Assembly: GCA_029448655.1 (NCBI GenBank)
Contig: JACCLO010000001.1
Span: 2,790,001-2,854,000 of the forward strand
Source of the DNA: Wolfiporia cocos
Taxonomy: Eukaryota; Basidiomycota; Agaricomycetes; Polyporales; Phaeolaceae
Reading direction: 5' to 3'
Length of the DNA stretch: 64,000 bases
Below, one piece after another: positions 27,401 through 29,560 of the stretch. The notes under the pieces are model-generated. The model saw only the letters and a program-made list of their open reading frames with translations. It ran no database searches and was not told the DNA's origin. The position numbers and the translations under genes are program-made. Within the stretch, counting starts at the first letter, position 1. Every line of letters begins with the position of its first letter.

Positions 27401-29560
27401 TTTGTCACCGACCTGCCAAGAGTCGGAAAGTATGACTCCATGATGGTGATTGTCGACCATGGCCTATCCAAGGCCATCTCTCTCACCCCATGCGACAAGA
27501 CGATCACTAGCGAAGGGGCGGCAGAGATATTTCACCGGAAAATCTACTCGCTATATGGCATCCCCCGAAAGATCATTTCAGACAGAGGACCGCAGTTTGC
27601 ATCAAAGCTTTTCAAGGAATTATGCAAGCTGCAGGGAACAGAATCAGCGATGAGTACGGCGTACCATCCACAGACCGACGGACAGACAGAAAGAATGAAT
27701 CAACAGATCGAAGTATACCTTCGCATCTATTGCATGAACGACCCTTTCCAGTGGGTAAAACGACTACCTGACGTCGAATTTGCACATAACACAAGGCGAA
27801 CTGAAAATCGACCTGCGCCACTTGAAATAATCTTGGGATACACCCCAAGAGGATTTCCAGACTACGACAGAGTAGGAAACGTCCCGGCAGCTGTCGACAG
27901 GATCAAGAAGATCAAAGAGGCGCGAAAGATGGCATTCACCGCGCATAAATTAGCCCAGAAAAGAATGGCAGGGCGGTTCCTCAGAGAACTGCCAAAGCTT
28001 GAGAAAGGGGATAAGGTCTGGCTCGACGCCAAGAACCTAATGATCCCCTACGAATCGAACAAACTGGCACCAAAAAGAGAAGGACCCTTCACCATCACAG
28101 AAAAGATGGGACCCACGACATACCGGCTGCAGTTACCGGCAAACTGGAAGATTCATCCGGTCTTCCACGCTGCCTTACTAAAACCATTCAAAGAAACAAG
28201 GGTACACGGACCCAATTACCTACGGCCGCCACCTGATATCATCAAGGGACAAGAAGAATATGAAGTCGAAGCCATCTTGGCTGACAGATGGCAAAGAAAG
28301 AAGCATCAATACTTCGTTAAGTGGAAAGGCTATGCCACGGCCGACAACTCATGGGAAGATGAGGCGAACTTGGAACATTCCAAGGAGCTGATAAAAGACT
28401 ACCACAGGACGAGAGTCAGGACAACCTCGACACTCGAAAACAGGACAGTAATAGTATGTCGACGACTCGCCACCAGCTCCCCCGCCGTACCACGACCTCC
28501 GGCGACGCAGATCGTCGAGAAGGCCGACCGCGAGGTACGCCACCAAGAAGGTACTCCCCCCAGCATCTACAGATTAGACACGCCCTCCTCTGGTACAGGG
28601 CCGAGGGACCTTTTGCTGGCCGAGCCAATGGCTGGTCGGCCCTCTTCGACATCGCGCAGGACCTCACCCACATTTACAGCTCGTACCAGAACATCACCGA
28701 GGACCTCGTCCGAATGGAGGGGCAGATCAGAGCGCAGAGAGAGGGACTCGAGCTACTCACCGACAGACTTATCGACCGATTGGCCGCCACTACGACGGCC
28801 CGACTACGACACGCGCTCAACGACTTCGAGGATCGCGAGCACGTTGCTCCCAATCGACCCGAATACACACCGCGACCCGCCCGCTTTTTCACCCCCGACG
28901 AACGACGCCGAGTTGCAAGGCCGTTTGATTTTATGGAGGGCGATAGAATATTATTTCCGTTGCCTACCGAGACTCAGAGGGCCCGCCGAACAGGAGCTAG
29001 AGACCCGACGCCACGTATTTCTGGTATGGGAGGCAACGGGAGACGTGAACCACCTGCACGCCCGACGAGCCCTAGGGCTACCCCAGCACGACAGCGAAGA
29101 GCGAATAGCACGCCGCCTATTCGACGATCTCCTTCAGTGCAGAGTATTACCCGCGAGGAGTTTGAGCGAGGTGCGAGGGAGCACGAACGAGACACCGCCT
29201 CCTTACCAACGTGGGCCGCACGAAACCTTCACCGAGCCGCACACCACTGGAGGTACCAACATAACGAATACCTCCGCGATATCCCTTCCCTACGGGTACC
29301 AGCGAGGCCCTCACCTGAGCAGCCGTGTCGACAATGTGGTTCCGCTAACCACTGGATCCTCGACTGCCCCGATTATATTTGCAGAACTTGTGGGCTCAAT
29401 CAACCAGGTCATCGACAGAATGAATGCCGCCAACACTTCGTATGGCGAACTCCTACAACCCCGTCCCTCAGCGGGAACGGCGACATCTACAACGAACAGG
29501 ACGCCGAGGCACTCTGAAGAGGGGAACTTGGAAAATTCGTCGAGGCCGACGAATGCTTAG
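24414..29560 (+). CDS. Pol polyprotein of element B (protease, dUTPase, RT, RNase H, integrase, chromodomain), one frameshift
   Basis: The frame is -1 to gag and overlaps its last codons (GFCLGGKPTVLPSEK). Aspartic protease: NALIDSGAMSNLIHS near 24548. dUTPase about 24926-25310: AAGYDLYAAEE, GRLAGRSG, GIIDSDYRGDVGAIVFN, RIAQIIFE, RGEKGFGST. Reverse transcriptase: FFVPKKDSGLRPCQDYRYLN, YMDDILIF near 26100. RNase H: LETDASQFATGAVL near 26545, YDRELLGIIRALEEW. Integrase: HHCC finger about 27188-27305, CSVDFVTDL, SDRGPQFAS, HPQTDGQTERMNQ. Chromodomain about 28255-28400: YFVKWKGYATADNSWEDE. Between GHPGI and HFWWP (near 27225) only 20 nt remain where element A has 27, shifting the frame from 24414..27263 to 27098..29560. 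A tail of about 370 residues follows the chromodomain. Confidence 0.9.
28456..29517 (+). CDS. ORF3 of element B: coiled-coil and double zinc-knuckle protein overlapping pol
   Basis: 353 codons from ATG (MSTTRHQLPRR) to a stop 55 bp before the 3' LTR, wholly inside the pol frame and -1 to it. Basic N-terminus; YSSYQNITEDLVRMEGQIRA and following residues predicted helical, coiled-coil-like (about 85-125); RRRVARPFDFMEGDRILF; SPSVQSITREEFERGARE; then two CCHC-like fingers, CRQCGSANHWILDC and CRTCGLNQPGHRQNEC. No signal peptide or membrane segment, so it is not env-like despite its place after integrase. All named blocks recur in element A. A nucleic-acid-binding accessory protein is my inference; I know no described family with this make-up. 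Confidence 0.75.
   Translation: MSTTRHQLPRRTTTSGDADRREGRPRGTPPRRYSPQHLQIRHALLWYRAEGPFAGRANGWSALFDIAQDLTHIYSSYQNITEDLVRMEGQIRAQREGLELLTDRLIDRLAATTTARLRHALNDFEDREHVAPNRPEYTPRPARFFTPDERRRVARPFDFMEGDRILFPLPTETQRARRTGARDPTPRISGMGGNGRREPPARPTSPRATPARQRRANSTPPIRRSPSVQSITREEFERGAREHERDTASLPTWAARNLHRAAHHWRYQHNEYLRDIPSLRVPARPSPEQPCRQCGSANHWILDCPDYICRTCGLNQPGHRQNECRQHFVWRTPTTPSLSGNGDIYNEQDAEAL

What the first reader, a model, noticed from the sequence alone, without database searches (positions are those of the whole stretch)
28456..29517. A third gene (ORF3) encoded over the 3' end of pol in a -1 frame
In element B two frames are open together for 1062 bp. The second encodes a 353-residue protein with a coiled-coil-like segment and two C-terminal zinc knuckles (CRQCGSANHWILDC, CRTCGLNQPGHRQNEC). 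Element A, well diverged in sequence, has the same protein in the same -1 relation to pol (HALxW, YQxITExLVxxE, FME, TGAR, SPSVxxIxREE, both knuckles, final EAL). The pol frame is conserved as well (ELQ .. ILWxA .. RRALGLP .. DDL). Double conservation argues for true dual coding. A non-env accessory ORF of this make-up is not something I know from chromoviruses.
Basis: partly seen in the sequence, partly recalled or inferred. Interest (0 to 1): 0.88.

Follow-up and report, generated by a model that had tools for sequence, protein, structure and literature searches.

The report
Overlapping accessory gene in fungal retrotransposon
A jumping element of a fungus carries an extra gene for a probable RNA-binding zinc-knuckle protein, written in a second reading frame over the end of its polymerase gene, and comparison of many copies shows that evolution preserves both readings, the new one more strongly.

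Summary
ORF3 (28456-29517, 353 codons) lies in the -1 frame over the end of pol, starting about 48 nt after the chromodomain. It is a real gene. In the same genome three families (B, A, C; ORF3 identity about 40% between B and A/C, 73% between A and C) keep it, with a conserved start and both zinc knuckles. Variants shared between copies switch phase at the ORF3 ATG: upstream they fall on pol wobble positions, downstream mostly on ORF3 wobble positions. Pooled two-frame fits give w_ORF3 0.09 and w_pol 0.32. Codon shuffles expect 8-11 stops in the ORF3 frame and 3-5 in the pol frame; none occur in six tested copies. Both frames are constrained, but ORF3 dominates; evidence for the pol tail is weaker. 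Decayed copies, element A included, carry almost only TGA stops in ORF3, changes silent in pol. One copy of a sister family has no ORF3. Function is inferred: an oligomerising, RNA-binding accessory protein. No homologue of known function or structural match was found; annotated relatives are four hypothetical proteins of Wolfiporia cocos, whose gene models join half of ORF3 to the pol tail.

The parts
21820..21824 (.). target-site duplication GTGGC, left (element B)
   Evidence: read; matches 30280-30284
21825..22532 (+). 5' LTR of element B, 708 bp (TGTTACGG...GTAACA)
   Evidence: 2 mismatches to the 3' LTR (22027, 22527); end read by eye
22573..24426 (+). gag frame (stop to stop), with its own CCHC knuckle
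   Evidence: Pfam Retrotrans_gag and zf-CCHC
24363..27263 (+). pol, first part in this copy: protease-like, dUTPase, RT, RNase H
   Evidence: Pfam (dUTPase residues 189-315, RVT_1 470-630)
27098..29560 (+). pol, second part in this copy: integrase, SH3-like, chromodomain, tail overlapped by ORF3
   Evidence: Pfam
28259..28408 (+). chromodomain of pol
   Evidence: Pfam Chromo E=8.5e-16, residues 388-437 of the 820-aa frame
28456..29517 (+). ORF3, 353 codons and stop, -1 relative to pol
28630..28839 (+). ORF3 residues 59-128: long predicted helix (coiled-coil-like)
   Evidence: block pLDDT about 53-73 (model mean 46); heptad hydrophobic enrichment in one copy of each of three families
28874..29161 (+). 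conserved 96-residue helical stretch of the pol tail, opposite ORF3's linker
   Evidence: pol-frame constraint in A-C; weak four-helix model pLDDT 64
29326..29367 (+). ORF3 zinc knuckle 1, CX2CX4HX4C
29380..29427 (+). ORF3 zinc knuckle 2, CX2CX6HX4C
29572..30279 (+). 3' LTR of element B
30280..30284 (.). target-site duplication GTGGC, right
30285..30462 (-). element A: start of its ORF3, upstream of the B insertion
   Evidence: ATG at 30462-30460
20926..21824 (-). element A: rest of its ORF3 with both knuckles, 7 TGA stops
   Evidence: (row G000:C1:2810926-2811825)
20913..21716 (-). element A: open pol-tail frame over the same DNA

Best explanation
ORF3 is a genuine accessory gene of a fungal chromodomain-bearing LTR-retrotransposon clade, wholly nested in the 3' end of pol in the -1 frame. 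SHOWN by sequence: both frames are kept open beyond chance; ORF3 is under strong constraint from its own ATG to its stop; pol's post-chromodomain tail is constrained too, but more weakly, in the A-C comparison most clearly opposite ORF3's linker. INFERRED: ORF3 is translated from its own AUG on a subgenomic or internally initiated RNA, not as a -1 frameshift extension of Pol. Its helical N-terminal half makes it oligomerise and its C-terminal tandem knuckles bind the element's RNA or cDNA, so it serves as a nucleocapsid-like accessory factor distinct from Gag (which has its own knuckle), acting after transcription: export, packaging or protection of genomic RNA. Its place between chromodomain and 3' LTR suggests that one of the two frames overprinted the other there; which came first is not known.
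For:: ORF3 in 115 scored matches (of 630 candidates) in the genome, 85 without a stop (hand tally); 47 copies from three families (25 + L081 of B, 20 of A, L077 of C) with both frames open, all beginning MS at the same place. A-C identity 0.73 in ORF3 against 0.57 in the pol tail and 0.76 in upstream pol; shared variants at ORF3 positions 1/2/3 are 19/5/63 (B) and 10/3/28 (A); upstream at pol positions 1/2/3 26/25/141 and 7/8/38; in B the phase switches at the ATG; pooled w_ORF3 0.09 [0.05-0.16], LR 96; w_pol 0.32 [0.17-0.61], LR 13.8, CpG in the model; shuffles both ways; with pol fixed, ORF3 identity between families exceeds the null by z 9.7-11.8; with ORF3 fixed, pol identity by z 3.6-4.4; in 8 of 25 B copies a stop lies 4 codons before the ATG, so no upstream frameshift is needed; no X XXY YYZ heptamer in pol phase at 28330-28560. 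Gag has its own knuckle; the sister-family copy has no knuckle and 17-18 stops in the other frames.
Against: No transcript or peptide evidence. RNA binding rests on knuckle spacing; Pfam zf-CCHC is below its cut-off in B and not listed for the A and C members scanned, where only weak sub-threshold hits (zf-CCHC_2, Zn_Tnp_IS91) appear. The ORF3 structure model is poor (mean pLDDT 46). w_pol was not significant in 5 of 7 single pairs, including both A/C-B pairs (0.90 and 0.94), nor in A alone (LR 2.6); part of the w_pol signal may reflect that ORF3 position-1 changes are milder than position-2 changes. In L010-L081 the linker columns 146-245 show no pol constraint (w_pol 0.90). Private B variants also show some constraint (w_ORF3 0.29, LR 24; w_pol 0.47, LR 6.7), perhaps because B loci were chosen by ORF3 similarity. 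Copies are not independent. Four of four Wolfiporia gene models do not contain the knuckles.
Confidence: 0.72

Rival explanations
1. Only ORF3 is functional; pol ends in effect after the chromodomain and its tail is passive read-through.
For: The pol tail diverges at least as fast as ORF3 in every pair compared; w_pol near 1 in L010-L033, L045-L010 and L077-L010; no Pfam hit for two tails and no homologue among 7995 scored candidates.
Against: Pol-frame stops absent where 2.7-5.0 are expected, P 0.0008-0.026 in 6 of 6 copies from three families; pol identity above every one of 1000 ORF3-fixed shuffles in 4 of 4 pairs, z 3.6-4.4; w_pol 0.40, LR 11.4, for ORF3 columns 146-245 in A-C.
Confidence: 0.15
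2. The working product is a splice form joining ORF3's N-terminal half to the pol-tail frame through a short intron of about 50 nt, as in the Wolfiporia cocos gene models; full ORF3 is the intron-retained form.
For: 4 of 4 Wolfiporia models (two families) join the frames at the same homologous place; the donor GT is kept in 63 of the 69 loci here that held the anchor motif.
Against: AT, not GT, at that place in 5 of 6 group C loci with the motif, intact L077 included (L078 has GT), and in L027 of B; the knuckle half skipped by the splice is strongly constrained (codons 286-360: w_ORF3 0.01, LR 26); pol-frame conservation in several windows already runs upstream of and across the would-be intron. 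Gene models are predictions.
Confidence: 0.12
3. ORF3 is made as a C-terminal extension of Pol by -1 frameshifting.
For: It lies in the -1 frame and is open 31-57 codons upstream of the ATG in 17 of 25 B copies.
Against: 8 of 25 B copies and 1 of 20 A copies have a stop 3-4 codons before the ATG; no slippery heptamer in pol phase at 28330-28560 (B only); the phase switch is at the ATG.
Confidence: 0.05
4. The second open frame is a by-product of pol's composition.
For: Arg/Pro/Ser-rich sequence.
Against: Codon shuffles, phase and rates; the third frame holds 7-12 stops in the same copies.
Confidence: 0.01
5. Functional rival: ORF3 acts against the host (suppressor of RNA silencing or of CpG-directed silencing) rather than on the element's own RNA handling.
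For: Copies bear the mark of CpG decay (TGA stops; CpG transitions fitted at 19-86 times the transversion rate); such factors are often small nested genes (recalled, no call).
Against: No direct evidence; the conserved tandem knuckles fit own-RNA binding equally well.
Confidence: 0.2

Closest known systems
CERV of Cer1 (C. elegans Gypsy/Ty3 LTR retrotransposon; PMC10309623, passages read)
   Same: Extra gene at the pol-3'LTR side of a Gypsy/Ty3 element, not env-like, predicted helical oligomerisation part plus Cys-rich putative RNA-binding finger; one exon in a frame other than the polyprotein; needed for export of unspliced RNA.
   Different: Five-exon spliced message with exons in the gag frame; candidate C4-type finger, not CCHC; no sequence comparison was made. 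ORF3 is one uninterrupted frame nested in pol.
Chromodomain-bearing Gypsy elements of Postia placenta, PosPlaTy3-3/-4/-5 (PMC2864245, section 5 and passages read)
   Same: Basidiomycete Gypsy elements with dUTPase in pol; in PosPlaTy3-5 between PR and RT as in element B.
   Different: The text says that most full-length elements have one or two ORFs; the Figure 3 legend lists an 'add. ORF' of unknown function, but the text read does not say which element, where, or what it encodes. Figure and supplement not seen.
brtn of Boty/BcGypsy1 in Botrytis cinerea (PMC8365987 passages; a reference title in PMC7264820)
   Same: A fungal Gypsy element with an additional gene.
   Different: brtn is antisense, by the reference title; sequence not compared. 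ORF3 is sense and overlaps pol.
Additional ORFs of plant LTR retrotransposons (PMC7264820, passages) and ORF3s of bdelloid rotifer elements (PMC5408684, abstract)
   Same: Extra genes beyond gag and pol, often of unknown function.
   Different: [quoted passage not shown] the rotifer ones are env-like, esterase or exonuclease. A knuckle protein dual-coded inside pol was not among what I saw.
Lentiviral vif (recalled)
   Same: Accessory gene beginning inside the 3' end of pol in another frame.
   Different: Only a short part overlaps pol; no knuckles; no homology claimed.
Retroviral nucleocapsid (recalled)
   Same: CCHC knuckles in a basic protein.
   Different: NC is part of Gag; here Gag has its own knuckle and ORF3 is separate.

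Membership tests
Chromovirus (chromodomain-bearing Ty3/Gypsy element) | LTRs and TSD | tested here: met
   708-bp LTRs, TSD GTGGC
Chromovirus (chromodomain-bearing Ty3/Gypsy element) | order PR-RT-RNase H-integrase | tested here: met
   Pfam hits in that order; protease hits weak and under their cut-offs
Chromovirus (chromodomain-bearing Ty3/Gypsy element) | chromodomain at the integrase C-terminus | tested here: met
   Pfam Chromo E=8.5e-16
Chromovirus (chromodomain-bearing Ty3/Gypsy element) | RT phylogeny inside the chromovirus clade | not tested
   no named reference RT set was aligned
Envelope gene (ORF3 as env) | signal peptide, transmembrane segment or fusogen-type domain | tested here: inconclusive
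   no such Pfam hit and no long hydrophobic stretch by eye; no transmembrane or signal-peptide program was run
Functional overlapping gene | second frame open beyond chance given the first | tested here: met
   both directions
Functional overlapping gene | purifying selection on both frames | tested here: met
   ORF3 strong; pol weaker, significant in the pooled fit, in B alone and in 2 of 7 pairs, and
Functional overlapping gene | both products made in the cell | not testable with these tools
   no RNA or peptide data
CCHC zinc-knuckle nucleic-acid-binding protein | CX2CX4HX4C | tested here: inconclusive
   knuckle 1 fits by pattern and is invariant in 8 of 8 aligned members; Pfam score under cut-off; knuckle 2 has X6
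CCHC zinc-knuckle nucleic-acid-binding protein | binds zinc and RNA/ssDNA | not testable with these tools
   needs protein
CERV-type RNA export regulator | sequence homology to CERV | not tested
   CERV sequence was not fetched or compared
CERV-type RNA export regulator | required for export of unspliced element RNA | not testable with these tools
   needs experiment

The most novel reading that the evidence does not exclude
Fungal chromoviruses of this clade evolved a complex-retrovirus-like regulatory gene by overprinting about 1.06 kb of pol: a coiled-coil, double-knuckle RNA regulator (export or packaging factor working like CERV or Rev), dual-coded with a pol-tail helical domain, in a partly interdigitated layout where conserved parts of one protein tend to face variable parts of the other, and with an optional splice swapping the knuckle end for the pol-tail end.
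Probability: 0.2. Interest if true: 0.88.

Novelty: new variant of a known kind. Interest (0 to 1): 0.73.

Why it matters
Extra genes in LTR retrotransposons are known, but this one is a full-length accessory gene dual-coded inside pol, in elements with more than a hundred copies in one fungal genome. That gives a rare natural data set: many young copies plus three diverged families in which selection on two overlapping frames, and its onset at the internal start codon, can be measured. It suggests that fungal chromodomain elements, usually treated as plain gag-pol elements, can carry retrovirus-like accessory functions, and it shows how CpG decay that is silent in pol makes such a gene look broken in old copies and easy for annotation to miss.

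Tried and rejected
Chance frame: rejected. Frameshift fusion: disfavoured. Required intron: disfavoured because 5 of 6 group C loci lack the donor GT. Matches of P0001 spanning both halves in one frame first looked like a family with a fused gene; the eight loci read are B copies shifted by indels. Homologue searches: ORF3 (2 hits) and its alignment (4 hits, the 2 earlier included; only the 7992 candidates sharing most words were scored), all Wolfiporia cocos MD-104 hypothetical proteins; the pol tail gave none at E<=0.01 among 7995 scored candidates (by the tool's length rule 451-1435 aa). Solved structures by sequence: nothing under E 0.85. The ORF3 model was too poor for a fold search, so none was run; the pol-tail model had no PDB match at E<=0.001. 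The bacterial promoter scan does not apply to a fungus. An automatic ATG-context tally caught wrong anchors in many loci and is not used; contexts come. Tf1-like self-priming: see noticed items. This covers open-licence PMC papers only, and only listings, abstracts or passages except section 5 of PMC2864245.
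Full report
WHAT IS THERE. The window is G000:C1:2790001-2854000 of a 64.4-Mb genome in 76 contigs. Element B is an LTR retrotransposon on the plus strand: LTRs 21825-22532 and 29572-30279 (2 mismatches in 708 bp), TSD GTGGC, gag frame 22573-24426 with its own CCHC knuckle, and pol with protease-like, dUTPase, RT, RNase H, integrase and chromodomain parts. In this copy pol is split between two frames around 27098-27263; other copies show a single pol frame of 1734-1735 codons. 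B sits inside element A (minus strand), cutting A's own ORF3/pol-tail region.

ORF3. The frame 28456-29517 (353 codons) lies -1 to pol, begins about 48 nt after the chromodomain match and ends 43 nt before pol's stop, itself just before a G-rich stretch and the 3' LTR. Its protein has a long predicted helix (59-128, low confidence), a variable linker, a conserved SPSV..I.REE stretch, and two knuckles, CX2CX4HX4C and CX2CX6HX4C. Pfam gives only sub-threshold zinc hits: zf-CCHC in B, zf-CCHC_2 in B and C, Zn_Tnp_IS91 in all three.

COPIES AND FAMILIES. A search with B's ORF3 scored 115 of 630 candidates in the genome, all 115 matched over 1-353, 94-100% identical, 85 without a stop (hand tally). 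The 30 with stops hold 44 TGA, 1 TAA and 1 TAG. A search with element A's pol tail opened two more tiers: A's family (73-81% in the upper rows) and group C (about 48-57%), with B-type tails at about 31-36%. In groups A and C ORF3 is present and in many copies intact. Of 87 loci held, 8 were RT loci and 1 the sister family; of the other 78, 3 lacked the knuckle motif. Two of the 78, L009 and L039, are the window's own B and A. With both frames open over 1000 nt or more there were 47 copies (25 B, L081, 20 A, L077); all 47 begin MS at the same place. ORF3 identity: A-C 0.73, B-A/C 0.38-0.42; pol tail 0.57 and 0.31-0.35.

CHANCE TEST. For six copies (L010, L020, L081, L044, L045, L077), shuffling synonymous codons with pol's amino acids fixed gave 8.0-10.7 expected stops in the ORF3 frame against 0 seen; with ORF3's amino acids fixed, 2.7-5.0 expected in pol against 0 seen (P 0.0008-0.026). 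The third frame holds 7-12 stops in the same DNA.

PHASE TEST. ORF3 position 1 is pol position 3, ORF3 position 2 is pol position 1, ORF3 position 3 is pol position 2. In pair L010-L020 the overlap differs at 0.017/0.003/0.099 of ORF3 positions 1/2/3, while upstream pol differs at 0.033/0.030/0.157 of pol positions 1/2/3. Variants shared by two or more copies (29 of 30 B loci and 21 of 22 A loci in register; the others dropped) give overlap counts 19/5/63 and 10/3/28, upstream counts 26/25/141 and 7/8/38. In 75-nt bins B's preferred phase changes at the ORF3 ATG: all 12 bins before it favour pol's wobble position (6/1/4 in the last), and the first bin after it reads 1/0/7. Inside ORF3 two B bins (from 375 and 525) do not favour ORF3's wobble position; A's counts are small and some of its bins are tied or reversed. 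Private variants, expected to be mostly decay after insertion, are flatter (36/19/48 in B; 20/19/35 in A), though in B they still show some constraint (w_ORF3 0.29, LR 24; w_pol 0.47, LR 6.7), perhaps because those loci were picked by ORF3 similarity; in A, picked by pol tail, neither is significant (0.61, LR 3.2; 1.17, LR 0.2).

RATES. A Poisson fit with transitions and CpG transitions as covariates gives, for shared variants pooled, w_ORF3 0.09 [0.05-0.16], LR 96.4, and w_pol 0.32 [0.17-0.61], LR 13.8. Singly: B w_pol 0.30 (LR 11.0), A 0.43 (LR 2.6, not significant). Over seven pairs (no CpG term), w_ORF3 is 0.04-0.65 with LR 17.7-78.6; w_pol is significant in L045-L077 (0.64, LR 6.9) and L010-L081 (0.32, LR 12.0) and not in the other five (0.37, 0.56, 0.96, 0.90, 0.94). 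The w_pol figure has a weakness: few sites are silent in both frames, and ORF3 position-1 changes may be milder than position-2 changes. A test free of that problem uses diverged families: with the ORF3 protein fixed and codons shuffled 1000 times, pol-frame identity in four A/C-B pairs is 94-100 against 70-75 expected (z 3.6-4.4; above every shuffle); with pol fixed, ORF3 identity is 107-120 against 51-53 (z 9.7-11.8). Residual shared ancestry could add to both. Windows with pol excess (z 2 or more) lie at about codons 124-185 and 190-280 in most pairs, and at 46-105 in the two C-B pairs; ORF3's lie at about 41-105, 127-185 and 200 to the end. So the picture of one protein's conserved part facing the other's variable part is only partly borne out. 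In the A-C pair it is clearest: columns 146-245 have w_pol 0.40 (LR 11.4) and w_ORF3 0.59; in L010-L081 the same columns have w_pol 0.90.

ELEMENT A AND DECAY. A's downstream ORF3 piece has 7 TGA stops while its pol-tail frame 20913-21716 is open. A C-to-T change making TGA falls on ORF3 position 1, pol position 3, where it is always silent; CpG transitions were fitted at about 19-86 times the transversion rate (the highest value poorly fixed). Decay of this kind therefore hits ORF3 and spares pol. Among 30 A-family loci picked by pol-tail similarity only (one is the window's A), 22 have an open pol tail and 20 of these an open ORF3; among the 30 B loci picked by ORF3 (one is the window's B), 28 have an open pol tail, 26 an open ORF3, 25 both.

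SISTER FAMILY. Elements with about 50% identical RT (L001-L008) have dUTPase before, not after, the protease-like part in the 7 of 8 loci that cover it. In the one copy read downstream (L087) pol ends after 377 codons of the stretch, with 17 and 18 stops in the other two frames over it and no knuckle pattern in any frame. ORF3 is thus not general to the genome's dUTPase-bearing elements; one copy of one family is thin evidence.

EXPRESSION. A is at -3 of the ATG in the four copies printed from three families (L010, L044, L045, L077). In 8 of 25 B copies and 1 of 20 A copies the ORF3 frame is closed 3-4 codons upstream of the ATG, and no X XXY YYZ heptamer in pol phase lies at 28330-28560 in B. 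These disfavour a frameshift fusion and favour a start at the ATG. How ribosomes get there is unknown: a subgenomic RNA is my inference. A donor-like GTGTAAGG precedes gag and several CAG/TAG sites precede ORF3 in B; conservation of a splice for ORF3 was not tested.

WOLFIPORIA MODELS. The only database relatives found are four hypothetical proteins of Wolfiporia cocos MD-104. All four begin as ORF3 and continue in the pol-tail frame, as if a short intron were removed. The donor GT is present in 63 of the 69 loci here that held the anchor motif; AT stands there in 5 of 6 group C loci (L078 has GT) and in L027; 6 loci lacked the motif. I treat this as an open alternative, not as shown.

FUNCTION. 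Best guess: an oligomerising RNA- or cDNA-binding accessory protein working after transcription. Gag already has a knuckle, so ORF3 is not a displaced nucleocapsid. The nearest working analogue found is CERV of Cer1 (PMC10309623, passages): helical oligomerisation part, Cys-rich putative finger, partly in another frame, required for export of unspliced RNA. That is likeness of make-up only; no sequence comparison was made. A role against host silencing is a fair rival.

NOVELTY. Ten literature searches gave no listing that described this gene. Novikova 2010 (PMC2864245; section 5 read) describes dUTPase-bearing elements of Postia placenta and lists an 'add. ORF' in a figure legend whose content I could not see; other fungal Gypsy elements are known to carry an extra gene (brtn in Botrytis, passages). 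I rate ORF3 a new variant of a known kind: an LTR retrotransposon with an additional gene, but nested in pol with measurable dual constraint.

Noticed in passing
24927-25307 (+): dUTPase domain in B's pol between the protease-like part and RT (Pfam E=9e-38), as reported for PosPlaTy3-5; in the sister family (L001-L003, L005-L008) it precedes the protease-like part, so the position differs between families.
   Followed up: partly
22534-22544 and 22198-22208: The bases after B's 5' LTR are complementary over 11 nt to an internal LTR site, as in Tf1-like self-priming (5 of 2000 shuffles as good). In element A the best match was 8 nt, so this is only a lead.
   Followed up: partly
5850-6149: A further B-type LTR fragment, 92% identical to B's LTRs, possibly a solo LTR.
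   Followed up: no
1-1173 and 9336-10523: Long inverted repeats (81-90% complementary) around an 8-kb interior, with similar 192/197-codon frames (CYFRIANTT...) in both arms.
   Followed up: no
33868-34256: Fragment related to element A's LTRs inside element A (repeat families D6, D8, D10, D11), perhaps a nested solo LTR.
   Followed up: no
genome copies of ORF3: Stops in decayed copies are almost all TGA, the mark of C-to-T decay in CpG.
   Followed up: yes
L069-L076: B copies whose ORF3 and pol-tail frames swap through indels, giving chimeric reads of the two frames.
   Followed up: partly
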